A stretch of 64,000 bases of DNA, from contig JAAPAO010000056.1 in assembly GCA_013115145.1 (NCBI GenBank), positions 35,718-99,717 on the forward strand, given 5' to 3'. The notes below the pieces were generated by a model that ran no database searches, had not been told where the DNA came from, and saw only the letters and a program-made list of their open reading frames with translations. The stretch's first letter is position 1. Each line of letters begins with the position of its first letter. The stretch is from Perkinsus chesapeaki (taxonomy: Eukaryota; Perkinsozoa; Perkinsida; Perkinsidae). Positions 2,594-47,733 of the stretch are shown here, piece after piece. The position numbers and the translations under genes were made by a program.

Positions 2594-3931
2594 ATGAACA
2601 ACATGGAGAACTCCACAATAAGATATGGGCGGGACAGTTCGACACTACTGGACGCCTGCAGATACCGATCCGAACATACAAATCCCGCTGAGCCACGCGC
2701 CGCGGGAAATACGCCACATTCTGGAGTGAGGCGAGGGATACTAAATGATAATGCAACACCTAAAGTTCACAGACATGTTGGAGGGGAAATGCAGATATCG
2801 ACTGAGCAGGAGGCGAGTGTGGGGACATCAACGGCACCGCTGGTGCGGACTCGGGACGCCGCAACGTCATTATTTTCTAATAGTGGATCTGGTCAGCTCT
2901 TGGAAAGCATTGAACAAAGCAGTGGCTCAAGTGGCCGGGATTCGGTTGCTGGAACGCCACCACGGGCTACACCGAAGTCTACGCGATCGCCAATTGACCC
3001 CAATATTACCGCGGACTACAACACCGTTGATGAGGAGGCATCGAAGTTCGTTCATGGCTACAAGAAAACAGACAGTCTCACAAAGAGTGCATTCAATGGA
3101 ACAGCTGGGAAAACATCACAGGTTCGAGACACCATAGAAGCAACTGGCGGTGAGAGTGAGGAAATAAAACCACGTGAGGGTACCGCAGATGAATCAAGTG
3201 AAGTGTCGGTAGAGCAGCATGAAGGCAAGGTGATGACATGCAACACTGCAGAGAGCGAACGACAAAACAACCAAGAGACTACCGTTGTTGTACTATTTGG
3301 GAAGTGTGGGCAGCCAGAAATACACGCGGGCACCTCGGATACAATTAAAAGGGATGTCGAAGAAGCCGAATTGCACGAAGGTAGCGTAGATGGTGGTCAT
3401 ACCGACGAGAAGGGTTTAAATCACAACAGCTGTTGCGATAATGACTGCGAGATAGAGGATGAAGAATCTAACCTTGAAGATGCTCCACAAGTGGTTGAGT
3501 GGATACCCGCCTCATCTGGTGCACAGTGCATGATCGATCCCAACTCCACCGTAAAAGAGCGTATTCCTGTAGAACGGATTCCCGAGTCTCCCCGAGCATC
3601 TGGAAAAGTACGTGTCCCGAAGATCGCAGAAGAGCCAGAGAGCGACACGCGAGACGGTCGCTCCACAATGACGGACATCGCACAAGCTTCAGCCAGGCAG
3701 GGTCCTTCGCAAGGAGCAGTTCTTTGGAAGGCTCACGCTCGCGAGTCCATCCACATTGAAGCCTCGTCAAGTTCGAGCAGCGAAGATCTGAAATGTATTG
3801 ACGATTTATTTGCATCACTTCATGCGGCTATGCGTGCAATCGATGGATTCGAGAATAAGAGCCCCAGTCGCGCCCTTCGCGAAAGCGATGGAAATGTTAG
3901 ATTCTCTTTGAGCAGCTGCGAGGGAATTTGA
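2594..3931 (+). CDS. Hypothetical acidic, disordered protein (445 aa)
   Basis: A single uninterrupted ATG-started frame of 445 codons, far longer than anything nearby. The product is rich in Glu, Asp, Ser, Thr and Gly, has no hydrophobic segment and no domain I recognise, and looks intrinsically disordered. Short acidic patches occur throughout, with a serine run near residue 395. The lack of introns is unusual here, where most genes carry several. The length supports real coding; function is unknown. It could also be one large exon of a gene whose other exons I cannot see. Confidence 0.6.
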   Translation: MNNMENSTIRYGRDSSTLLDACRYRSEHTNPAEPRAAGNTPHSGVRRGILNDNATPKVHRHVGGEMQISTEQEASVGTSTAPLVRTRDAATSLFSNSGSGQLLESIEQSSGSSGRDSVAGTPPRATPKSTRSPIDPNITADYNTVDEEASKFVHGYKKTDSLTKSAFNGTAGKTSQVRDTIEATGGESEEIKPREGTADESSEVSVEQHEGKVMTCNTAESERQNNQETTVVVLFGKCGQPEIHAGTSDTIKRDVEEAELHEGSVDGGHTDEKGLNHNSCCDNDCEIEDEESNLEDAPQVVEWIPASSGAQCMIDPNSTVKERIPVERIPESPRASGKVRVPKIAEEPESDTRDGRSTMTDIAQASARQGPSQGAVLWKAHARESIHIEASSSSSSEDLKCIDDLFASLHAAMRAIDGFENKSPSRALRESDGNVRFSLSSCEGI

Positions 3932-4241
3932 TGCAGATCGCTGCCGAATGTAGCAAAAGTTTACCGTCAACCTTTGGATGTTGAGCTCAGAGTTGCCGGA
4001 AGTATAATATTGGTTAACAGTATAAATTGGTGAGACCGTCTCACTGAGTCGCACTACGTTCTAACTTTAACCCGTGAGATTTCCGTTCCCTGTATTATAG
4101 CGAAGCCCAGTCGGCATATTGGATCGCAGACTGCGACTCGCAGTTTCGTTTAGGTCAGTTTACTGGCAGTAAACAAACTTGTCCCACCATTTTGGACGCC
4201 AATTTCGATCCCCGGGACTACAATCTGTTCAGCTTTGACAG

Positions 4242-4258
4242 TAAGCAAAGTTTGCTTA
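4242..4258. repeat. Perfect hairpin, 1-nt spacer
   Basis: TAAGCAAA (4242-4249), spacer G, TTTGCTTA (4251-4258): an 8-bp perfect inverted repeat with a single-base spacer. Confidence 0.8.
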
Positions 4259-4522
4259 AACTACGGATTCATTGTAGTAGCTGTAGTCCAACGTCTTCAA
4301 ATGCTCTACATTAACGACTTCGTTGATGAGCATGACAGGGGCATAAAGATGAAACACGAGGGTCTCATACCAACCGCCTCTGACTGAGTGGCAGTACATG
4401 CGCACCTGAAAGACTACTTCCCCCGTCGTTGTTGAAAGATTGACAATGAAGACGAACAGAATAGTTGGAAAAGTCATGCCTGGAATAAGCCTGGACAAGA
4501 AAGTCCACAGAGTTGAAAGCAT
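4256..4522 (-). CDS. Possible short secreted or membrane protein
   Basis: An ATG-started 88-aa frame. Residues about 5-30 are hydrophobic and resemble a signal peptide or signal anchor; the rest has no known motif. It could be the first exon of a larger secreted protein. Support is limited to the hydrophobic N-terminus and true ATG. Confidence 0.25.
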   Translation of the reverse strand: MLSTLWTFLSRLIPGMTFPTILFVFIVNLSTTTGEVVFQVRMYCHSVRGGWYETLVFHLYAPVMLINEVVNVEHLKTLDYSYYNESVV

Positions 4523-5183
4523 TAGTATCTAGTCAGCAACCTAATAGCTTCAGGAATTATAGCTATAATAGAATACAGCTTAGCGCTTTATTAGGTAACA
4601 GACTGTTACAGTCAATCGCGCAATAAATCACCATAGCAATAGCACAGCCGCCTCCTCAGAATCAAATATACAATGATTGATGCCATAACCAAATATATCT
4701 CGAACCACTTCGAGAAACTTGAGATATGTTTGTTTCTCCTTGTTAGGAAGAACGACAAGAATAACAGGAATCATTCTACCAGAATAATGTCTCTATAAAA
4801 TAGTATATTGTTGATACCAAAACGTAGGCGCTTTCTCGAAAGTTCCATCACCGAAATATGTATTTCCGGAGTTGACGACACGACACTATCGACAGTATTT
4901 TGATCACACCAGACTAAAATCCGGTCTGCATCCTCGGATCCGGAATCGAATACAAGAGTCTGACGGATCTCAGAACCCAAGAAAGCACAAGAGTATCTTT
5001 CCGGGATGTCGAAACCACAGCGAGACTTCGGATTTAGAGGGGCGTCCAAAACTCTCAACTCGTACTGCACCAGCCTTTCAATCACAGAAACTGATTTACC
5101 CAATTCGACCACATGTGGCTCAGGCACTAGACCCCACAGAGGTCACCTCATCGTATGCATCACACGGCTTCCTCTCAGACTGA

Positions 5184-5204
5184 GATACTGAGAGTCTCAG
5201 TATC
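5184..5204. repeat. Perfect hairpin, 10-bp arms, 1-nt spacer
   Basis: GATACTGAGA (5184-5193), spacer G, TCTCAGTATC (5195-5204). A perfect 10-bp inverted repeat with a one-base spacer is unlikely by chance in a window of this size. Confidence 0.85.
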
Positions 5205-5299
5205 CGACGCAACCAGTGCTTCATTCACATGAATCATTACCACTCTTGCCAATGCATTACACGGACCACATGAGTGACGAACAATCTTCACGGCATTGT

Positions 5300-5512
5300 T
5301 CACCACCAGGAGGAGCCGTTCAGGCTGCCGGCAACCACTAGCCTGCCCTTGTAGTCCGGAAAGGCTGCTTTTTGGCTGCCTTTGAGGGCACAGCGCCAGT
5401 TGCTCACTTGCTTCTCGGCATCATACCTGTCCTTTCGATAGGTGTATCCATTATAGATGATCATGGGGTAACCACAATTGGTAGGAGCGAAGTGAAGTCT
5501 GTGATCTGTCAT
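5300..5512 (-). pseudogene. FLYWCH-like zinc finger fragment
   Basis: The minus strand encodes about 60 residues with the look of a FLYWCH domain: an aromatic-rich start (IIYNGYTYRKDRY), a short gap, then a WRCALKG segment where the family has its Trp-x-Cys. I do not see a clean second Cys or the terminal His-x-His, so the domain is probably broken. In many eukaryotes such domains sit in Mutator-like transposase genes, so this may be a mobile element relic, but no transposase core or terminal repeats were found. Confidence 0.35.
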
Positions 5513-6352
5513 GGCTTACTGCGAGAGATTGCAGAAAAAACAACACTACCTAGACCATATATGAATACAGGCTGTATTATACAGGTTATTTCCCCAGTGG
5601 GGAAACCCCACATTAAATTTTGCGAATGAAATAATAAATACGCAAAGATTTTATTGCGGCAAGTATGTTTGACATACTATTATGGCTATTATGTTACTAT
5701 GACCAGCATATTAACCTACTAGCACACAACGGCGTGATACAAAATCCCATACCCTGATAAAGCCTATTCACTGGTCTAATGTATGCCTATATATATATCG
5801 ATGTCTATCTTGTGCCGCTGATATATTGATATGTTAAGCGGCATCTGTCTGTCACGAATCGATCCGCTTAAATCAGAAGATTTACCCATGTACTCGTAAG
5901 CGATATTACAGTTCGAAAATAAAAGTTAGCGGTTAGGGTTAGACCACCGGAAATTTTCTAAAGCTTGGATTTGGAGTTACCCACAAATTTCTGATCGATG
6001 TTAAGAATCATATTCGACCGAAAACTCATTAAGATCGTCGTTTTGACCAGTCGGCATCTTTCAGAGTTCCTTCCGCAAACACTGGGAAACTCAACATTAT
6101 TTGACTAGTGGCGTGCCTGAAACCATCAACTGCTATACCTAACATCCCTGTGATATACAATTCCTACTACACAATAACACGAGGATAATAGAGAGCAGGA
6201 GATTGAAGAGAAACAGAAACGGCAATGATGCAGGAACAGCCAATGCTAGATACGACGAAGTGTACCAAATTCACAGAGATGAACACTCGGCTTGCGAGGG
6301 GTTTGACGGACTACTGGGGACAAAGACTAGATAAAGGAATAGAGAATATGGC

Positions 6353-7833
6353 CTAGAAAGTAACAATAGACTCATAACCACCCACTACGATCATCAATAC
6401 ACTCAAGGCCATCATGGCGAAGAGAATAGTAAGCTCTATCCTACTGGACTTCCACACAGTCATAAACGAACCTTCATTGAGGACACGCATTCTTATATAG
6501 AAGATACCAGGAAGTATGCCTGCCATAGCTGTCATAGTGAAAACACTTAGCAGGTCTATGAGCTTCTGGACACTAGGAACAACAATAGCGATAACAAGAG
6601 TAATCAACACTAGTATAGTGCGTACAGTGATACGCTTGATAGTCGGTACCATTCCCTTGGCCTCCTCTGGGTCATCTACCCGGTATGGAAGAAGTGGTAA
6701 TAACAGATACTCCAACGAGGCGGCGATAGGGAACAATAATACAATGTAATGAGGAAAGCATAGACATATAAGTGAAATGACACATGTGTATCCCCAACCA
6801 TCTAAACCTCCTGTAGGGGGTGCAATCCGATCAATAATGGGAACATTCACCAACGAGTTGCCGTAACCGAAATAGCCACATCCAGCAATGCCGCCGTAGA
6901 TCACAAAAATGCACAAGTACGAGACAGTGGCAACTTTCGGTAATGCACTTGGTGTTTTCATATCCCGAATGAGGGTAGCAAGCACGTTGGTGACATGGTA
7001 TGAGAGCATCGCATTGCCAAAGGAAACGCCGAATTCTAGAGGATTCCATATCCACCAGTCATAGTCGATCTCTTCATCGGTAGTGACTCCATTGGTGATA
7101 CCGTTGACAACGATAAGAATGAACAAGACAATAAGGGCCGCCATGCCGAATGCGGATACATAGGAAACTTCATTAAGCGATTTGAGCCATGTTAGAGGCC
7201 AGCAGATCGCTGCCCATATGCAGCACCACACCTTACTAGACAGACCAGCCATTGGAATTAACTTCTGAGTGTTTTCTCCCAACAGCAACAATAAAGTAGA
7301 GCAGCAACCAGTCATAGTAATATGAACTATTCCAGCAGTGAGAACAGCGCCTATGGGACCAAAGCATACATAACCAAGCTGTTCATAGGTGTTGATGGGT
7401 TCTCCTTTAGGGTGACTTGTATAAGCTACATAAATCTTTCCTACCATATGGTTGGATATTACAGCCACAATAAAGAGAATAAGTAAACCACCAAACCAGC
7501 CGCAGTTTGCGAATGTAGTAGGCAACATAATAACGCCAATGCCTAACAAAGATACATATCAAAACCACCTTTGAATGGGAGATGCTTACCAATTGCCGTT
7601 AGAATTAGATTAAATACAGATCTTATATTACTGCACTTCCCTTGAGGTGCCGTTGAAGGATTAGTAGTTTCTAGATCAGCAGAAGTAGCCTTAGAGGTAA
7701 CGTCGGTGGTGTCAGTATTGGCGGTGGTAGTAGTGGCACTAGTCTCAGAGAGTGTCACCTCCTGGGTGAATATCTCCGAATCGCTTGAAGCATGATGCTG
7801 TTTTTTGAAGTACCCAAGACACGTACCGGCCAT
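6353..7833 (-). CDS. AAAP-family amino acid transporter, copy 1
   Basis: Member of the amino acid/auxin permease (Aa_trans) family, which moves amino acids across membranes with H+ or Na+. Exons 7590-7833 and 6353-7542 are joined by a 47-nt intron (gtaagc...gttag), giving about 477 aa. The N-terminal ~70 residues are a Thr/Ser-rich cytosolic tail ending in KCSNIRS, followed by roughly 11 hydrophobic segments beginning with the family-typical GIGVIMLP stretch. The intron cuts phase 1 inside the AIG|IG codons, exactly as in the three downstream copies. Start: first ATG in frame at 7833. It is the most diverged of the array with copy 4. Substrate cannot be told from sequence. Confidence 0.9.
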
Positions 7834-8277
7834 ACACAAAGAGAGGGGGAATCAGCGTTCCCACCGTTATTCGTCTCAACTAAAAAGTCAATATCATCTT
7901 CGAGCTCGCAAGAGACTCCTATGGCTCCAGAGCACAAAATGCCGCTAGCTCCAGAAGGTGGTGAAGGTGAACTCAAGACGTGGGGTGGATATTAGCTATA
8001 GAAACGATACCTGATATCAAACTTGAAAGGAACGTCAGATGGTGCCCGCACGGCATCGTCTAGGCTATTCGCTAGCTAGCTGATAGGAGACATGAACTTT
8101 TAAGGAGTATAAACAGCAGTAGATAGGATTCGTCTTCAGTTCGTGAAGTCGAGGAAGTAAAATGCTTCGCTCAAATCGCCAGCACAGCGAATGATCTTCG
8201 TACTTGAAACGGAACAAGAGGCAGAACGTTCCGTCCCGGAACATGGGGGCCAGTTCTGCCATAAATGAGATTGAAGA
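7834..8277. other. Spacer between transporter copies 1 and 2
   Basis: The 444-bp spacer holds a 65-aa minus-strand frame (8065-8262) with no motif; I see no supported gene. Confidence 0.5.
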
Positions 8278-9675
8278 TTAGAAATCAACAATCGACTTAT
8301 AACCACCGGCTCCCATAACTAATAGACAAAGGAGAGTGAGAGCACACAGAAGGCACATTTCCAGTCGATGAGCCTTCCATACAGCCTTCAATGAACCCTC
8401 GTTGTATACACGTATCTTTGTATAGAACAGAGCAGGGAGGACTCCAGCCATAGCGATCATGGTAAAGACACCCATAAGATTTATCAACTTGTCTACACTT
8501 GGAACGACAATAGCGATAACAAGGGTGATGGCTACCAGCACAGTGCGTGCTACGATTCTCTTTATGAGATCGCGCTTTGCCGTGCTATCGACATCGATGT
8601 TAACAGCGTACTCGAGAGAGGCAGCAATAGGCATGAGGATGACCAGATAATGAGGGAAGGCCAGTAGGAGCATGGCGATCACTGCAACGTAACCCCATGC
8701 ATCTAATGGCTGACCAGCCGGAGCAATACTGTTCATGATTGGAACTTCAATCAGATTCCGTCCATATCCGTAGTAACCACAAGCTCCAACGCCAACGTAG
8801 ATAACGAAGACGATCAGCAAGCCTGCCGATGCGGTCTTCGGGAAGGCTGATGGGGTGATCATCTCACGGATGAGGGTGGGTGTAGCACTAGCCATCTGGT
8901 AGGAGAGAATAGCGTTACCGAATGACACAGCCCAAGTGAGGGCGTCTCCGTTGAAGAGATCATACTGGATGACCTCATCAGTGGTGATACCGTTCTCGAT
9001 ACCTTTGGCGGCGATGATAATGAAAAGCGCAATGACGCCTATCAAACCAACCATCGCAACATAGGAAATCTCCTTTAGAGATCTCAACCAAGAAAGGGGG
9101 AGGCATATGCAAGCCCAAATGACGCACCATACAGTAACAGAGAGCTGCGGTGCTAGCTTTTGGGTGTTCTCGCCTAATAACAGAAGTAATGTGGCGCAAA
9201 CACCAGTCATAGTCACGTGCACTATAAGGGCGGTAACGATCTGGCCAACACGACCGTAGCAAACTCTGCCGAGCTCCTCGTATGTATTAATAGGATCACC
9301 TTTTGGATGATTCGTAACAGCTTGATACAACTTGCAGACCATATAGTCCGAGAGAGCGGCGGCGACAAATAAAACCAAAATACCACCGATCCAACCACAA
9401 GTGGCCATAACAGTAGGCAAAGTAATAACGCCCAAACCTGATAGGAAATTACCATAACAAGCGTACAAATGAGGAAAGCACTTACCGATAGCCGTGAGCA
9501 CAATGTTGACGATGGAACGAATGTTGGAACACTTATGGGAGTTGTCTTCCTCATTCGATTCTCCGGCGTTGGCCTTGGAATCAGACCAATCGCTGCTGGT
9601 AGTAGAGTCCTCTGAAAGATTTAAAGAAGCCATAGAGCCTTGGTGATGTTGTTGTTGCTTATCAGCGAGGCTCAT
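8278..9675 (-). CDS. AAAP-family amino acid transporter, copy 2
   Basis: Exons 9486-9675 and 8278-9437 give about 449 aa. The intron between them is 48 nt (gtaagt...atcag), a multiple of three without a stop, so a naive ORF reads through it and gains 16 false residues between AIG and LGVITLP; comparison with the other copies shows it is an intron. The N-tail is Ser/Gln-rich and ends in KCSNIRS, then about 11 membrane segments. Start chosen at ATG 9675; an in-frame ATG at 9768 exists, but its extension has no counterpart in the other copies. Closest relative is copy 3 (long near-identical stretches around residues 90-180). Confidence 0.9.
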   Translation of the reverse strand: MSLADKQQQHHQGSMASLNLSEDSTTSSDWSDSKANAGESNEEDNSHKCSNIRSIVNIVLTAIGKCFPHLYACYGNFLSGLGVITLPTVMATCGWIGGILVLFVAAALSDYMVCKLYQAVTNHPKGDPINTYEELGRVCYGRVGQIVTALIVHVTMTGVCATLLLLLGENTQKLAPQLSVTVWCVIWACICLPLSWLRSLKEISYVAMVGLIGVIALFIIIAAKGIENGITTDEVIQYDLFNGDALTWAVSFGNAILSYQMASATPTLIREMITPSAFPKTASAGLLIVFVIYVGVGACGYYGYGRNLIEVPIMNSIAPAGQPLDAWGYVAVIAMLLLAFPHYLVILMPIAASLEYAVNIDVDSTAKRDLIKRIVARTVLVAITLVIAIVVPSVDKLINLMGVFTMIAMAGVLPALFYTKIRVYNEGSLKAVWKAHRLEMCLLCALTLLCLLVMGAGGYKSIVDF

Positions 9676-10332
9676 ACGGCCACGAAGCAAAAGAAAAGAA
9701 GAAACGCTCAAACTGGAATGATAGCCCACTACTAACCAGAAGTTCTGGTCCAGAACGACAAGTGACATCTAGCCTGGACAAAACCATATCTGCTAGGAAG
9801 TTGACGACGGGAAAACACCAAACTTTGCCCCCGTGAGGTATTTATTGATTTTGCTATAAATGGCAAAACTTGTACGAGCGATTAGTGGGACACAGGTGCA
9901 CCAGTGGATCAGTCCCCTCAGAACATCAGGCCTAACGCGAGACGAATAATGGAGTAGAGTTAATGTAGGAAACGGTAGCTCAGAGGAAGGAGCATGAAAC
10001 CCGCACGGTAACACTCTCGATGGCTCAGAAAACCGAACCGGAAAAGGAACATTATGGTACGAGCAGCCCTCCTCTATGGCTAGCTACTCGAAGGATAACG
10101 TAAGAGGAGATGGAGGCTACACGCAGAAAGGGATTAGATAGGCTGCTATCGGCCCCGCTAGAGCTAACGAGATCTGAATGAACAGGAACAGAACTGTGAA
10201 CCGGGATCGCAAGGGACGCCGGCTCGAGAGTATATAACATAGGGATCTGGTTAGTTCTCCCTCGCGGAACTTATTAGCTGTTAAAAGACTTGGTCAAAGA
10301 ATGAGAATATCGAGGACGGCGGCCTTTTCGCC
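9676..10332. other. Spacer between transporter copies 2 and 3
   Basis: About 650 bp with no supported gene. Minus-strand frames at 9793-10014 and 10052-10240 are short and lack motifs. The promoter or trans-splice region of copy 2 is expected here but shows no recognisable element. Confidence 0.5.
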
Positions 10333-11741
10333 TTAGAAGTTAACAATAGCGACGTAGCCTCCTGCTCCCATTAGTAGTAGGCAGAGGAGGGTTAAGATAA
10401 GCATAGTAGACATTTCAATCCAGTTGGACTTAATCACAGCCATTAGAGATCCTTTATTCAGGACTTTCATCCTAACATAGAAGAGGGCAGGCAGAATAGC
10501 AGCCATAGCGATAACGGTGAAGACGCTCATAAGGTCGATAAGGTTGTTTACACTAGGAACAGTAATAGCGATAACAAGGGTGATAGCCACCAGAAAAGTT
10601 CTAGCCAGCGCTCTCTTAATGAAGTCGCGCTTTGACGAGCTGTTAATATCCACCTTAATAACGTACTCAAGTGAGGCAGCAATAGGCATTAGTAGGACGA
10701 GATAGTGGGGGAAGGCCAGAGCTAACATGGATATCACCAGAGCATAGCCCCAAGCATTCAGAGGCTCATCGGCTGGTGCAATGCTGTCGAGAATCGGCAC
10801 TTCGATAAGGTCCCGTCCGTAGCCGTAGTAGCCACATGCTCCTACACCAACATAGATAGCAAACACTATGAAGAAACTCACAGTTGCAACCTTGGGAAAG
10901 GCCGACGGGGTCTTCATTTCTCGTAGCAGATTAGGAGTGGCACTGGCTATCTGGTAGGAGAGAACCGCGTTACCTATCGATATAGCCCAATTGAGGGGGT
11001 CATTGCTGATAAGGTCGTACTGGATGTCCTCATCAGTGGTGATGCCGTTCTCGATACCTTTGGCGGCGATGATAATGAAAACGGCAATGATGCCGAGGAG
11101 GCCAACCAGCGCAACATAGGACAAATCCTTCAGAGATCGAATCCACGACAGAGGCGTGCAGACGGCAGCCCAGATGACGCACCATACAGTAACAGAGAGC
11201 TGCGGTGCTAGCTTTTGGGTGTTCTCGCCTAGTAACAGAAGTAGCGTGGAGCAAACACCAATCATAGTGACGTGCACTATAAGGGCGGTAACGATCTGGC
11301 CAACACGACCGTAGCAAACTCTGCCGAGCTCTTCGTAGGTATTAATAGGATCACCTTTTGGATGATTCGTAACAGCTTGATACAACTTCCAGACCATATA
11401 GTCCGAGAGAGCGGCACCAAAGAATAGGACAATAACGCCACCGATCCAGCCACACTTCGCCATGACGGTCGGGAGGGTGATGACGCCCAAACCTGAAATA
11501 AAACGAAATCGAACCCGATACCTCGCGCAAGAAAGTCCAACGACTAAACCACTACGCCGTTCATCTTACCGATAGCTGTGAGAATGATATTCAAAATTGA
11601 TCGAAGGTTAGAGCATTTTCCCTCATCAGGATCGTCCATCACGGGAATGCTAGGCTTGCTGTCCAGGCTGTCCTCCTCAGCTACTGAGGATGCAGTCCGA
11701 ATAGTAGTAGTAGGAGAGTCAGATAGATTCATCTGGCTCAT
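10333..11741 (-). CDS. AAAP-family amino acid transporter, copy 3
   Basis: Exons 11570-11741 and 10333-11492 give about 443 aa. The 77-nt intron (gtaaga...tttcag) is the longest in the array but lies at the same phase-1 site. The N-tail is Ser/Thr/Asp-rich and ends KCSNLRS; the membrane core has about 11 hydrophobic segments and ends in GGYVAIVNF. Very similar to copy 2, so the two are probably the most recent duplication. Start: ATG 11741 (an ATG at 11732 is also possible). Confidence 0.9.
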
Positions 11742-11988
11742 TATGGCCGTTAATAAGAACAACTACCGATATCTACTTCGCAAATGCACTGCAACGCAAC
11801 AACATCCTAATTTGATAAAACCTATAATTGTCGGGCCTCCACGTGGTACCGATTGCACCGAAGTTATAGCAGACAGAAAGATACGATCTTGGGTAATGTA
11901 TAAGGCCTAGTGGAGGTTTCGGAAACATATTGGAGAAGCGTGTTGACGCTACCAGTAATACGGGTTAGAACATTCTAGGGAATCGGAC

Positions 11989-13314
11989 TCAGAAATTTTT
12001 TATTGCTGAATAGCCACCAACTCCCATGATAACGACAGCTAAAAGTGTCAGGAAGACCAATAGTACAAACTCTGCTGTACGGTTCTTGAAGACTGCCATG
12101 AGCGAGCCTTGATAAGTGAGAGCCCGCATGCGAAGGCAAAGCAGAGCTGGTAAAATCATGGCAATTACAACCATGGTGAAAACGCCCAGTATGTCGACTA
12201 ACTTTTCGACCGATGGAACTACTACAGCCACTATGAGAGTGACTCCAACGAAACAAGTACGAATGACAATCCTCTGTAGAGTGCTCCGCACAGACGTACT
12301 TAACACGTCTACTTTAAAAGCGTATTCGACTGAAGACACGATCGGTAAAAGCATAACGAGGTAGTGTGGAAAACACATAAATAATATAGCAATTACCAGA
12401 CAATAACCCCAAGCATCCAAGGCCTTTCCGGCCGGAGCGATACTATTAATAATCGCATTATTTATCAGACTTCTACCATAACCGAAGTAGCCACAGCAAC
12501 CAACTAGAAAGTAAATAACAAAAGTCAGTCCAAGCCCGATTGACGCCACCTTCGGGAACGCACTCGGAGTCCTCATATCGCGGATTAGTGTCGGTGTGAT
12601 GTTAGCTATTTGATAGGCCAATATAGAGTTACCAAAGGACACCGTCCAAGCCAGAATATCTGAGCCTAGCAGGTCATAGGTCACATCACCGTGCTCTTCA
12701 ATGCCTTGCACTATGCCTTGTGCGGCGATGATAACCAGCACGGCAATAATGCCCACCAGACCAAGCGACGATACATAGGTTATTTCCTTGAAGGACCTCA
12801 ACCACGAGAGGGGAGTGCAGACAGCCGCCCAGACGCACGTCCAGGCCTTAGCGGAGATCTGTGGAAAAATCTTCTGTGTATTCTGACCCAGCAAGAGCAG
12901 CATCCCCGAACAGGCCCCGGTCATGGTCACGTGGACAACGAGTAAAGTGATGACCTGCCCGACTCTGCCGTAGCAGACTTTGCCCAGTTTCTCGTAAGTG
13001 TATATAGGTTCCCCGGTAGGATGGATGCTGACTGCGGTATGGAGCTTGCAAACGAGATAATCAGTAATAACGGCTCCTATACAAAGTATGATAGCACCGC
13101 CGATCCACCCACACCGGGCGACCACGCTTGGTAATGATACGATTCCCAAACCTGAAAAAGGTAAACATGAATTGTTTCGCTCCGCTCAAGACTTACCAAT
13201 GGCTCCCAGTATAACGTTTATAACCGCGTGCATGTTGCTACATTTCTTACTGGCCTCTGCATCAACTTTCGCCTCAACCGCATGGGAAGCATTTCCGACG
13301 CTGACGTTGGCCAT
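11989..13314 (-). CDS. AAAP-family amino acid transporter, copy 4
   Basis: Exons 13197-13314 and 11989-13151 are joined by a 45-nt intron (gtaagt...ttcag), giving about 426 aa. The first exon is short (39 codons plus one base) and ends in KKCSNMHA...LGAIG, matching the conserved junction of copies 1-3. About 11 membrane segments follow, ending GGYSAIKNF. It is clearly diverged from copies 2 and 3 in the loops. Start: ATG 13314, the only ATG upstream of the junction in frame. Confidence 0.9.
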
Positions 13315-13585
13315 TAAAGGCGCTTAAACGTCGAGAATCCTAGCACACCGTCGACGGACTTTGGCGACCCGAACTCGACTCCGGGGGCAAAGTGAGAGGC
13401 AATTAGTAATTTCAATGACACACAACAACGCCGAGACGCGGTCCCGTCGACTCTGAAGAGTTGAAAACAAAAACATAGACGGCCGTACAGTCCAGATGCC
13501 GCATCCAGGAATTGAACCTGCGCGTCTATACGCCACACCAACAATTCCACTACCCCCTTCCCGTCCGGCCATCTGAGCACAGCAT

Positions 13586-13852
13586 TCATAGTTCAGTAAC
13601 ACTGCTATGATGGGCAGGCGAGGTCGATGACGTACTCGGGCTCGAGAAGCTCGCCGTATGTTTCCTGCCGATCGCGCCCGATCCATCCAGGCTCCGGATA
13701 GGTAAGGAAGGTATCTCTTCAAGCATATGATTATGAAGATGGTTATCCTCATTGAATGTCAGTTCTGTCTCGGCTTCCAAGGACGCTGCTATGGACGTAG
13801 GGGTGTCTCGACTGAGATCAGAACGAAGTGCGGTATGAACCGGTTTACTCAT
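13586..13852 (-). CDS. Hypothetical Ser/Thr-rich ORF
   Basis: An ATG-started 88-aa frame, rich in Ser, Thr and Glu, with no hydrophobic segment and no known motif. It lies upstream of the transporter array on the same strand. It could be a first exon or chance. Confidence 0.25.
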   Translation of the reverse strand: MSKPVHTALRSDLSRDTPTSIAASLEAETELTFNEDNHLHNHMLEEIPSLPIRSLDGSGAIGRKHTASFSSPSTSSTSPAHHSSVTEL

Positions 13853-13945
13853 AGCTTCAAATTCACCTATAAATCGAATACAGACCACCACCACAACAAC
13901 AATAACAATGACGTGACTATTGAAATTGCGCCATTCAAAAGTCAT

Positions 13946-16900
13946 TTCCGGCGACCTGAATCAGGCCGTCTTTACAGAACACAGTGGGACTAACTTAGCA
14001 AGCGAGACAGGAGGTTCATGATTGCACTTGACAAGGTCTAAAGATTCCACCAGACCAAGCTTTTACCATCATCTATGCGAGCACCCTAACATTACCCAGA
14101 GCAGCAACTGTCCGTCACCAGGCCGTCACCGCGTGGCGTGTTATTAGCTGCTTTCCGGCTCACCGCCCGAATTCGCCTTGCAGCTTGCTTGTAAGAATAA
14201 GGTTGAGGTCTGCACCAAGAATCCAGTCGGCAAAAAGCCATCATTCTATTACAGCTTTTGTTTTAAAGAATTATAGGTAGCACACTCCAGCTCCACCCTC
14301 GGGCCCAATGTAGCTCTAACTAGTGTGTAGGCAGCTGTGATGTAAACTGAGGAGTCATCATCACAGACAAACATTACTCTAGGTAAAGGGGCATTGGACG
14401 GGTGGGCCGATGCTAACCTGAGCGAGAGGGGGAATATCTATGAAGATTCGAATACGTTACGAATAAGGAAGAGACATTGCAAAATACCATAAACTTAATA
14501 CACTTTTTGCGAATCTATTATTAAACAAAGCAGTCACTATAACAGTAATCCACAATCTCGTACCGTCTTCCGCAAAAAACACTACTTTGGATATTCTTCA
14601 GAGTGCGATAGTTTCATATTCGATCGTATTTTTAACATGCAAAAGCTCTACACCCCAACCTACGTAATTAGCTCCTGTATTGCTGAGAGGACAAACTTGC
14701 AGCGAGCTGCCTTAGCAGAGGCAGCTGGCTGGAACTTAACTGGATCATCTTGGGCGAGGGAAGTGTAGACGCAATCCACCATTACCAGGTTAACATCTAA
14801 AATGCATATGACAGAATGCGAAACGTTCGAGCGAGAGGTGAACAGAAGTGTTGATAGAATACTAATAGAAATATAGTAGTAAAGAGGGAGTGTGAAGATC
14901 GATCCGTGGCCATAATTAAGGTAATAATAATGATTAAAAATGTTTATTTGATATTGTCATTTATAATTTATTATATACCAAACCGTATAATACCGACAAC
15001 ACCGAAAATTCAGCATGAACTAACTAATCGTATGAAAATTAGTTGAAGTCCGAGCATTGAGGAGCATAGGACAGAGCTAAACAAGCGAATTTAATGTGTG
15101 GTAAGTGGTAATAATAAGGCTCCCGAGAAGGGCTGCTGCACTGGGACCGGCGGCAGAGGCGGGCTACTCGTAAGAGTAATTGAACATGACAATATTTATT
15201 ATAGGATTTTAGTATCGAAATATAGTCGGTTCTTCGAAAACAGCAAATTGCGAAAAGTTCATGATAATTTCCTACTAAAATTTGCAAGGATAAAGGGGAA
15301 TACAGCCCACTCGAGTCCCAATAGCCATTGACCGAGAAATCCGTGGATACCACACTTAAAATGACTACCATCCCAGTCCTGTATAGGAGCTGACGCAGCA
15401 GTAACTATCCCACGAAGATGCACACGCTTCCTTAGGGACGTCTCGCGAAGGCTTCTGGCCAGGTAGGAACTGCCGGGATCATTTGTCACCAGTAGAACTT
15501 CGGGACGACGAGATTCGGTATCTGAAAAGCTGCGAACTATGGCCAGCTAGAAGCCCTTTGAAAAAACAAAGAGGGTGATCGATGAAAGATTCATTCTAAT
15601 TAATTCGAAAAGCACGAAAGCCACTACGTGATTAGTCATTATATTAAACCTGCGTAAGGACACTCCGGCGAGGTTTGATTTTTCCAATTACCTTCAGTGG
15701 GCCCAGATACGAGCCATTCAAGGAGGAAGGTCTCAATGATGTTCTGAAGGAAGTCTGTGATTTGGGAAAGTTGCGGTATGATAAGGAGTAGTAGTGATGC
15801 CCAAAACTTAACCCAGTAGGCTGACCAGTAGAATATAGAGTAGAGCCAATAGGTAGCGATTGAGACTACCTGAAGGGAATTATTAATATATAAATGTAAT
15901 AAAGAGGTGACATAGAGGTCTTATTTTTAAAATATTAATGTAAATACAGTGAATATATAAGCAGCTCTCCAACATAAGGAGCTTACAGAGGTAGCCCATC
16001 TAGCCATTACTTCAATTAAGGACGTATCATGGCTGAGGAACTGACACAAGTAGCATCTTAGGACCAATGTAAGGCTGAACCTACGTCTCTCGAACTTATA
16101 TAGGCATCAACCACAATCTGCTCAACGCATCTTTTGCCCGAGAACAAATCGATAATCTCAGTGGGGAAGATTCCCTTACAAAGGAGGCCCCAAAAGGATG
16201 GGGACGAACTCTGGGAAGAGGACGTCATTTATAGAGACAAACTGCATAGGCAGGCGCTATTTTGATGAGAATCTGCGGAAATGTGGTATGAATATCCTGC
16301 AATGAGGCGACAAAGAAGCCCTATTCGGCAGAAACCTTAGGAAAATGCCAAAACATGAATGGGCTCCGAAGTCAGTGAAGAAATAACTTTTCCTAATCGC
16401 AAGCAATCAACATTGATTCCAATTGGGCCTGCAAAGTAAGGTGCCAGTAATTGCCCAACGAACCACTTCGCAAACGTGTTATTCATTTTAGGAAGGTTAC
16501 TAATTTTTGTCCAGACCGAGTAGACCACTGGCGGCAGTCCCCTAGACACTCACAAGTTTTCTGTAGTAATCGGCGGCTTGATGAGAACGGAGAGCGCTAA
16601 TCAACTTTTTGATAGAATACAAAGCCATAGAGTAATAATTCTAGTTCAGATTAACAAAAGGCACGTGTGGGCCCAAAAGGTGTAAAGGTATTGCCGAAAA
16701 ATATGCGGAAATGATTCCCTATGGTCGATGAAAGGAAAATATAGGCAATTTTCAAATAGGGTTAGAGCATGTATCACAATCGGCTGCCCTCATCAAACGC
16801 AGAAATAGCTTGAGAAGATGAACGTTCGGAGACACGAACTATCTGTGACCGAGGCGAGCTACAGTACCATTTAAAACCCGGTGTGATGAGTAGGCGAAGG

Positions 16901-46382: not shown

Positions 46383-47190
46383 TTATTCTTTCTCTGCATT
46401 CTCTTTCTTCTCTGCTGCCGCATTCTCCCTTGCTGTAGCCCTTTCCGAGAGGTACCCCTGATATCTGATCAAACAAAAGAGCGGTATGAACTCACCGTTA
46501 AAAGCAACTTACACTAGCGTTCCGAAGGCTGCATTGATAACCAGGTCGCTTAGGTTCCATGCCAGATAATAATGTCGGCCAAAGATTGGATCTTCCCCAG
46601 AGATGCTGACATAGTCTACCACCGCCCCGACCAGAAGACGATCGAGCCCGTTCCTGAACAACGACCACTTTTTCCACGAAACGCCGCGAGGCTTACCCCA
46701 CAGCTCCCACCATGAAGATGAAGATTCCCAACTTGTTCCGCCAGTTGGCATCTTTCTTGATGAAAAAATAGACAAAAGCGCCGGTAAGGAGGAGAATGGA
46801 TACGCTCATCATCGCCCAGTAAAGCGTGCGATTAATGCCCCGAGCAAAACTGAGGATAGAGATAACCGACTCGAGAAGCATTCTCCTCACCTGAGTGCCG
46901 AATGACGATTCTCTACATAGCACACGTCGAATTCTAAAACCGAACTAAATCTGAAGGAGATATGGTGCGCAGTTGCTGCATTGGAAAACTCACATGCTCA
47001 ATATTGAGCCCGACGGACGGAAGCGGTTGGCCAAGTACTTCAAGGAGAACTCTATGGCGAGAAAGAGCCCACCAATAGTCCACCATTTTAGGGGGTAACC
47101 AAAGCCCACAGTATCTTCATTACTGTGACCATGATCGACCTCAGAAGGACCTGACAACAGAACAGTCGAGGTAGCATGAAGCCTTTCAGC
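46383..47190 (-). CDS. lspA: Signal peptidase II (LspA) homologue, 5' end incomplete
   Basis: Exons 46994-47190, 46891-46950, 46697-46849, 46513-46653, 46383-46464 join in consistent phase through introns of 43, 41, 43 and 48 nt. LspA is a four-helix membrane aspartic peptidase (A8) that cuts bacterial prolipoprotein signal peptides. The first helix ends in FSLKYLANRF (bacterial S-K-Y). CYVENRHSALSF matches the family Y-x-x-N-x-x-x-A-F. Then come GAVGNGLDRLLVG (G-N-x-x-D-R), VVDYV and LAWNLSDLVI, holding both catalytic Asp residues. A charged Ala/Glu/Lys-rich tail follows the last helix. No ATG is seen in the first exon; another 5' exon is expected. Starts the next gene 80 bp on. Substrate and organelle unknown. 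Confidence 0.85.
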
Positions 47191-47733
47191 CTGTATCTAG
47201 CTGGAATCACCCAAGGCCCCTGAATACAAGTACTCATATATTCGTGGGTGCCCTCACTACAACAATACAAATTACTGCACGGGCTAATGCACTCTCAATT
47301 GAGATAGAGAAAACATCCGAGCTGACCGCCGGCCAGTGACCGGCGTCCCCTCAATGTACTCAATTCCGAGCGCACAGCTATTTTCCTTCCAAGCGGATCA
47401 CCATAGAGAAGCTGACTCGTCGAGAGCGCTGCTTGAATGGGAACACTTTAAAAATACCCTCCCAGTATCGAAGCCCAGTATCTCCCAGGCGAAATAAGGC
47501 TGTTACGGTTACAGTGTTACCCGATAAGCGACAGGGAGCCTTTCTTAATGCTATGTGTCATGTCTTACCGTTGGCGTCCTCGGGGGCGGGGGCCTGCCCG
47601 GAATCCCCAGGGCCCTCTGCGCGGCGGCGAAGGTTGGATTCCTCGCAACTGGACATCGGTACGAAAACTACCAATCAGGGAACCGAATTAAAACACAAGT
47701 CGGTGAAGTGGTAAGGCAAAATGTGCTAGACAA
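47191..47733. other. Spacer, likely 5' part of the LspA gene
   Basis: This 540-bp stretch should hold the first exon of the LspA homologue. A candidate is ATG near 47233 (MSTCIQGPW), joined in phase by a 20-nt intron, which is too short to trust. No other gene is seen. Confidence 0.35.

What the first reader, a model, noticed from the sequence alone, without database searches (positions are those of the whole stretch)
46383..47190. Signal peptidase II (LspA) homologue encoded by a spliced nuclear gene
Seen: five exons joined in phase, with the LspA order of motifs, including G-N-x-x-D-R, V-V-D-Y and W-N-x-S-D with both catalytic Asp, and four hydrophobic helices. Known: LspA is a bacterial enzyme acting on lipid-modified prolipoproteins, a pathway eukaryotes lack. 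Inference: an old bacterial or plastid acquisition, now spliced like its neighbours, with a possible new substrate in a relic plastid or the secretory system. It is not contamination, because it carries four short introns and sits 80 bp from a normal gene.
Basis: partly seen in the sequence, partly recalled or inferred. Interest (0 to 1): 0.88.

Follow-up and report, generated by a model that had tools for sequence, protein, structure and literature searches.

The report
Bacterial lipoprotein peptidase in a protist
A single-celled marine eukaryote carries a genuine, spliced nuclear gene for a lipoprotein-processing enzyme usually said to exist only in bacteria, together with the enzyme that acts just before it in bacteria, and there are signs that the pair works in the cell's secretory system, which would be a new way for a eukaryote to attach lipid to proteins.

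Summary
Confirmed and extended. The window is Perkinsus chesapeaki (P0001, FOL47_008609). The protein passes PF01252 (7e-16), has orthologues in P. marinus and P. olseni, keeps the catalytic Asp pair and 10 of 14 highly conserved LspA residues, and is modelled with four helices and a cradle of strands. It belongs to the LspA family as a divergent subfamily.

The partner enzyme exists too: four tandem spliced Lgt genes. Lgts of Perkinsus, Amoebophrya, Symbiodinium and many unnamed metagenomic proteins form one group apart from the bacteria sampled; LspA splits likewise, though its only named eukaryotes are Perkinsus. Both groups are enriched for a C-terminal KKxx, the ER-retrieval signal (Lgt 34 of 51 against 5 of 145; LspA 14 of 32 against 0 of 27). 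All four P. chesapeaki Lgts can splice to a KKxx last exon. The Perkinsus LspAs lack it.

Best reading: an ER-located Lgt-LspA lipoprotein pathway. Substrates were not found.

The parts
47569..47656 (-). exon 1 of the LspA homologue (start codon at 47656-47654), hydrophilic N-terminus
   Evidence: exact match to P0001; P. marinus alignment also begins here; end of intron 1 not settled
47151..47568 (-). intron 1, 418 nt, GT-AG
   Evidence: one search placed it differently
46994..47150 (-). exon 2, helix 1 with E63 and K67
46951..46993 (-). intron 2, 43 nt
46891..46950 (-). exon 3, first cradle strands and E-N-R-H-S-A with N96
46850..46890 (-). intron 3, 41 nt
46697..46849 (-). exon 4, helix 2 and most of helix 3
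46654..46696 (-). intron 4, 43 nt, splits the codon before N154
46513..46653 (-). exon 5, G-N-x-x-D-R, V-V-D-Y (D166, 46616-46614) and W-N-x-S-D (D189, 46547-46545)
46465..46512 (-). intron 5, 48 nt
46383..46464 (-). exon 6, end of helix 4, charged tail and stop; no KKxx and no candidate hidden exon giving it

Best explanation
The gene encodes the second enzyme of a bacterial-type lipoprotein pathway that now works in the endoplasmic reticulum of Perkinsus and probably of other dinozoans. SHOWN: a spliced LspA homologue with the catalytic residues kept; spliced Lgt genes in the same genome; Lgt also in Amoebophrya and Symbiodinium; both enzymes in groups of their own, apart from the bacteria sampled; C-terminal KKxx strongly enriched in the Lgt group and frequent in the wider LspA group. 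INFERRED: a secretory preprotein with a lipobox-like Cys enters the ER; Lgt, held there by its KKxx tail, transfers diacylglycerol to the Cys; LspA, both ends in the cytosol and its Asp pair at the lumenal face, cuts before the lipidated Cys and releases a protein anchored by a diacylglyceryl-Cys. No Lnt was found, so the product would be diacylated. The genes were acquired from bacteria, Lgt before Perkinsus, Amoebophrya and Symbiodinium diverged, and both enzymes then fixed changes near the active site, which hints at another donor lipid or lipobox.
For: PF01252 in P0001-P0004, 4 of 4. Catalytic D118 and D136 equivalents in 32 of 32 of the LspA group, and N52, R110, N133 too, the positions where alanine or Asn/Gln mutants of S. 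aureus LspA kept 0-7%. Fold with four helices and cradle strands, mean pLDDT 83.1. Lgt: 4 copies, PF01790 155 bits for P0005-like joined copy, no in-frame stop in the aligned reading of any copy, model pLDDT 91.7, P. marinus EST Pm04168. One eukaryote-containing group in trees: SH-aLRT 100 for 51 of 147 Lgt rows, 100/100 for 21 of 43 chosen rows, SH-aLRT 100 for 32 of 64 LspA rows. KKxx: Lgt 34 of 51 against 5 of 145; LspA 14 of 32 against 0 of 27. A KKxx last exon in 4 of 4 P. chesapeaki Lgt copies, shuffles 3.9, 3.7, 0.5 and 0.9%.
Against: No substrate: a scan of 284 kb gave 6 lipobox-like candidates, no more than expected from other residues at that place (A 7, G 5, R 5) and four of them in transporters; the lipobox model PF08139 found none in the genome (such searches miss split exons). 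The three Perkinsus LspAs have no KKxx, and no hidden exon supplies it in P. chesapeaki (8 candidates, 0 KKxx). LspA was found by name only in Perkinsus; none named from Amoebophrya or Symbiodinium (capped at 8000 candidates). Four of the 14 conserved LspA residues differ, three of them in 32 of 32 group members. Lgt R143, called essential in E. coli, is Lys in 50 of 51. Both enzymes miss the NCBIfam equivalog cut-offs. Amoebophrya Lgt has no KKxx. Splicing of the last Lgt exon has no RNA support here.
Confidence: 0.64

Rival explanations
1. Repurposed enzymes: the LspA and Lgt relatives sit in the ER but have left lipoprotein work, for example as an intramembrane aspartyl protease and a transferase with other substrates.
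For: No substrates found; fixed changes at 4 of 14 conserved LspA positions and at Lgt R143; equivalog cut-offs missed.
Against: Both enzymes of one pathway are kept, which is hard to explain without the pathway; the catalytic positions of LspA are kept in 32 of 32 and Lgt R239, E151-equivalent D, and G154 equivalents in 51 of 51.
Confidence: 0.2
2. Plastid-derived enzymes that work in the relic plastid of Perkinsus.
For: Perkinsus has plastid-type isoprenoid genes (passages of PMC2868825); the 2006 text notes that such traits also entered eukaryotes with chloroplasts.
Against: No hydrophobic leader before helix 1 of P0001 and the Lgt models of Perkinsus start close to the bacterial start; KKxx on the Lgts; the listed nearest bacterial Lgts are KSB1, Latescibacterota, Poribacteria, Acidobacteria, Calditrichota and others, no cyanobacteria among 80 (limited by its patterns). 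Cyanobacterial rows were not in the trees.
Confidence: 0.11
3. Bacterial or viral contamination of the assembly.
For: The family is otherwise described as bacterial.
Against: Five introns; orthologues in P. marinus (178-kb contig) and P. olseni; Lgt with seven introns of the same phases in three copies; no relative in two scans of viral contigs.
Confidence: 0.01
4. Decaying leftovers without a function.
For: No substrates found.
Against: Active-site residues conserved between three species and in 32 of 32 group members; open reading in four Lgt copies; an Lgt EST in P. marinus.
Confidence: 0.03

Closest known systems
Bacterial signal peptidase II, LspA (PF01252; PDB chains 5dir_A, 9emz_A, 6ryo_A)
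   Same: PF01252 profile, sequence match to the solved LspAs, catalytic Asp pair and 10 of 14 highly conserved residues, four helices with cradle strands in the model
   Different: Spliced nuclear gene; E for D21, W for F132, S for A135 in 32 of 32 group members, G54 replaced; long hydrophilic N-terminus in Perkinsus; below the TIGR00077 equivalog cut-off (60.7 against 73.95 bits)
Bacterial prolipoprotein diacylglyceryl transferase, Lgt (PF01790; PDB 5azb, 5azc)
   Same: Joined P. chesapeaki copy at 155 bits; match to 5azb; bacterial relatives in 6 of 8 chosen genomes are the only Lgt there
   Different: K for R143 in 50 of 51 (R in 141 of 141 outside), Q or M for H103 (its bacterial kin mostly have Y or F there); KKxx tails; spliced, four tandem copies; below TIGR00544 cut-off (99.6 against 118.9)
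GPI anchoring of eukaryotic secretory proteins (recalled, no call)
   Same: Would lipid-anchor secretory proteins in the ER (inference)
   Different: Unrelated enzymes; here the lipid would sit on an N-terminal Cys, in GPI anchoring on the C-terminus

Membership tests
Peptidase_A8 / LspA (PF01252) | Profile match over the curated cut-off | tested here: met
   P0001 59.2 bits, P0002 70.5, P0003 65.7, P0004 74.3; cut-off 25
Peptidase_A8 / LspA (PF01252) | Catalytic Asp dyad (D118, D136 of S. aureus LspA) | tested here: met
   D166 and D189; D in 32 of 32 of the group
Peptidase_A8 / LspA (PF01252) | All 14 highly conserved residues | tested here: not met
   10 of 14 identical in P0001; D21, G54, F132, A135 differ. 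A divergent subfamily, not the standard type
Peptidase_A8 / LspA (PF01252) | Four helices with beta-cradle | tested here: met
   Prediction: H50-73, H109-132, H138-160, H187-225 and strands 77-82, 87-96, 164-174, 178-185, mean pLDDT 83.1; no structure search was possible
LspA equivalog TIGR00077 | Score over 73.95 bits | tested here: not met
   60.7, 63.7, 57.9 bits for three Perkinsus proteins
Peptidase_A8 / LspA (PF01252) | Cleaves diacylglyceryl-modified prolipoproteins | not testable with these tools
   Needs biochemistry
Bacterial-type lipoprotein pathway | Lgt present in the same genome | tested here: met
   Four copies on contig C5
Bacterial-type lipoprotein pathway | Preproteins with a lipobox | tested here: inconclusive
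   284 kb scanned, 6 candidates without enrichment; PF08139 no match
Bacterial-type lipoprotein pathway | Lnt (not present in all bacteria with the pathway) | tested here: inconclusive
   PF20154 no match; the same kind of search missed LspA
Lgt (PF01790) | Profile match over the cut-off | tested here: met
   155 bits, cut-off 24.9
Lgt (PF01790) | Residues called essential, R143 and R239 of E. coli | tested here: not met
   R239 equivalent R in 51 of 51, R143 equivalent K in 50 of 51 and I in 1 (mapping by alignment)
ER membrane proteins with di-lysine retrieval signal (motif recalled) | KKxx or KxKxx at the C-terminus | tested here: inconclusive
   Met in 41 of 51 Lgts and 19 of 32 LspAs of the groups, and in 4 of 4 P. 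chesapeaki Lgts if the last intron is spliced; not met in 3 of 3 Perkinsus LspAs

The most novel reading that the evidence does not exclude
Dinozoans (Perkinsozoa, Syndiniales, dinoflagellates) have an unrecognised way to lipid-anchor secreted proteins: a two-enzyme Lgt-LspA pathway of bacterial origin, moved to the ER with retrieval tails and tuned together, by fixed active-site changes in both enzymes, to a eukaryotic donor lipid or a changed lipobox, so that a eukaryote makes N-terminal S-diacylglyceryl-cysteine proteins.
Probability: 0.5. Interest if true: 0.92.

Novelty: new variant of a known kind. Interest (0 to 1): 0.82.

Why it matters
LspA is described in print as bacteria-only: a 2025 review says 'found exclusively in bacteria' (PMC12067869, passage), the abstract of PMC9943842 says 'absent in eukaryotes' (seen in listings), and a 2006 paper has it lost in the common ancestor of archaea and eukaryotes (PMC1586193, passages). 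A pair of these enzymes in dinozoans, with ER address tags, would be a new route of protein lipidation in eukaryotes and a case of a membrane-bound bacterial pathway rebuilt in the secretory system. It makes a direct test possible: look for lipidated N-terminal cysteines in a cultured dinoflagellate.

Tried and rejected
My first joining of the exons kept a 41-nt intron as coding; replaced by the model. Six-frame family searches of the genome missed LspA, so the negatives for Lnt and the lipobox model are not used as proof of absence. PF01066, looked at for phospholipid synthesis, was not informative.

A giant-virus source of the intronless metagenomic relatives was considered: two viral-contig scans found pattern matches (50 and 39) but no relative. 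A bacterial source was considered: the GTDB scan's best 80 of 166 confirmed loci reach 43% identity (limited to two peptide patterns), the metagenomic proteins P0012-P0043 41-50%; these ranges overlap, so the argument rests on the trees and the tails. Their organisms remain unnamed.

A lipobox survey of 284 kb (window, L005, L006, L087-L106) showed no enrichment. An arginine-based ER signal at the Perkinsus LspA N-terminus (L-R-R-R in 3 of 3) was noted, not used; that motif and the meaning of KKxx are recalled. A structure search could not be run.

Rows dropped: P0007 (partial) from the Lgt trees; 3 of 80 GTDB loci gave no usable frame; the tree took 28 of those 77; one search took 73 of 77; one search used 43 rows chosen by me. 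27 of 30 bacterial LspA loci gave a frame, 25 of them different. The donor site was fixed after it had been found, which had 28, 37, 17 and 26 candidate introns and one further KKxx in copy 4; the shuffle figures are therefore somewhat favourable. One of the four acceptors (copy 3) is not pyrimidine-rich by my rule.

Full report
WHERE. The joined protein finds its own annotated copy, P0001 (FOL47_008609, Perkinsus chesapeaki, on a contig of 99,717 bp, the length at which the window's contig ends), then P. marinus P0002 (named by a source 'Lipoprotein signal peptidase, putative'), P. olseni P0003 and a metagenomic protein P0004: 4 hits among 1888 candidates. So a database name already existed. 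A search with P. marinus P0002 finds the gene only at this place in the genome (3 exon matches).

GENE. P0001 maps onto the minus strand as six exons with five GT-AG introns. The P. marinus protein aligned to the DNA reproduces introns 2-5; intron 1 came out differently.

FAMILY. PF01252 is passed in 4 of 4 proteins; three distinct PDB sequences, all called lipoprotein signal peptidase, match the profile. Of the 14 highly conserved residues listed for S. aureus LspA (PMC6952399, passages), ten are identical in P0001. At five of these positions (N52, R110, D118, N133, D136) mutants kept 0-7% activity, though N52Q kept 71% and R110K 50% (passage with Table 1); all five are kept in 32 of 32 group members. 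The four changes are D21 to E, F132 to W and A135 to S (each 32 of 32; bacterial rows D 32, F 30, A 32 of 32) and G54 to H (23 of 32, other residues in 9). In S. aureus LspA, G54A was active and G54P dead; the other three were not among the mutants shown. The model has four helices and cradle strands. NCBIfam's equivalog cut-off is not reached. I conclude: a real but divergent LspA.

PARTNER. PF01790 matches in the genome lie on contig C5 only (4 of 4; 20 of 20 for P. marinus P0009). Spliced alignment shows four tandem copies between C5:3477 and 14767, none with an in-frame stop in the aligned reading; three show intron phases 1,0,1,2,1,1,2, and the fourth, matched only from residue 17 on, the same series from its second intron, with uncertain small pieces at its 3' end. 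Among the 120 listed of 1703 hits are P. chesapeaki (2), P. olseni (3, one partial), P. marinus (2), Amoebophrya sp. A25, Symbiodinium sp. CCMP2592 and S. necroappetens. A P. marinus EST (Pm04168) was reported in 2010 as similar to prolipoprotein diacylglyceryl transferase, in a paragraph on glycan assembly (PMC2868825, passage), so Lgt is transcribed. Of eight bacterial genomes that I chose among holders of near relatives, six have only that one Lgt.

ONE GROUP. In a tree of 147 Lgt rows, 51 rows including every named eukaryote are split from 96 others with SH-aLRT 100; in a careful tree of 43 chosen rows the split has 100/100. In a tree of 64 LspA rows the 32 with Perkinsus are split off with SH-aLRT 100. 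The trees are unrooted and have long branches. For LspA the only named eukaryotes are the three Perkinsus species; the other 29 rows are unnamed metagenomic proteins. That the LspA is dinozoan-wide is therefore inference.

ADDRESS TAG. In the Lgt group 34 of 51 end in KKxx and 7 more in KxKxx; of the others 5 of 68 and 0 of 77 end in KKxx (Fisher 3.5e-20). In the LspA group 14 of 32 end in KKxx and 5 more in KxKxx, against 0 of 27 bacterial frames (p 3.5e-5). In the Lgt group Lys stands at -3 in 90% and at -4 in 71%, but at -5 to -14 in 12-29%, so it is not merely a Lys-rich tail. Relatedness inflates these p-values. Named carriers: P. marinus (2 of 2), P. olseni (2 of 2 complete), Symbiodinium (2 of 2); not Amoebophrya. 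The two annotated P. chesapeaki Lgts seemed exceptions. But in each of the four copies a phase-2 donor lies in the last Lys codon of the unspliced reading (copy 3: a Lys codon followed by three more codons), and one acceptor downstream gives KKED, KKTD, KKSD or KKTN followed by a stop. With that donor fixed, this happened in 3.9, 3.7, 0.5 and 0.9% of 2000 shuffles per copy (product 7e-8). KKxx at a cytosolic C-terminus is the classical COPI retrieval signal of ER membrane proteins (recalled). The three Perkinsus LspAs lack it, and the same search finds no hidden exon for it in P. chesapeaki.

MECHANISM. The first 49 residues of P0001 are hydrophilic, with no leader before helix 1. With four helices both ends lie on one side; if that is the cytosol, as in bacteria, the Asp pair faces the ER lumen, which corresponds to the outer face of the bacterial membrane. 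Lgt would lipidate a Cys of a preprotein there and LspA cut before it. These steps are inferred from the bacterial enzymes. The fixed changes in both enzymes (LspA above; Lgt R143 to K in 50 of 51 against R in 141 of 141) suggest another donor lipid or lipobox; R143 is called essential in E. coli (PMC8048626, passage), so loss or change of activity is not excluded.

GAPS. Substrates: none found, by weak tests. Lnt: none found, but that kind of search missed LspA itself. Donor: open. Print: Perkinsus with lipoprotein signal peptidase, 0 papers; prolipoprotein diacylglyceryl with Perkinsus and eukaryot, 1; prolipoprotein diacylglyceryl transferase with dinoflagellate, 1, the same EST paper; signal peptidase II with dinoflagellate, 4, of which I opened passages of one, which treats the enzyme as lost in eukaryotes; further searches listed nothing on this by title (one search listed 6 of 948). 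Only open-licence PMC papers are held, so an unseen report is possible.

Noticed in passing
window 6353-13185, minus strand: Four neighbouring open reading frames of 398-496 codons, all PF01490 amino acid transporters: a tandem family.
   Followed up: partly
L005/L006 (contig C5), about 3477-14767, minus strand: Four tandem Lgt copies; the annotated models FOL47_000228 and FOL47_000229 appear to end inside an unrecognised last intron. Two of the four copies had no entry of their own among the 120 listed hits.
   Followed up: yes
P0001-P0003, residues 9-16: L-R-R-R-A-[ED]-G-P is kept in 3 of 3 Perkinsus species in an otherwise variable, disordered N-terminus; it may be an arginine-based ER signal (motif recalled).
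   Followed up: no
P0046 (Amoebophrya sp. A25): Its Lgt has about 150 extra N-terminal residues with hydrophobic stretches and no KKxx tail.
   Followed up: no
P0127, P0129, P0130, P0131, P0135, P0140: Metagenomic LspA relatives share an N-terminal V-R-T-R-S motif besides a KKxx tail.
   Followed up: no
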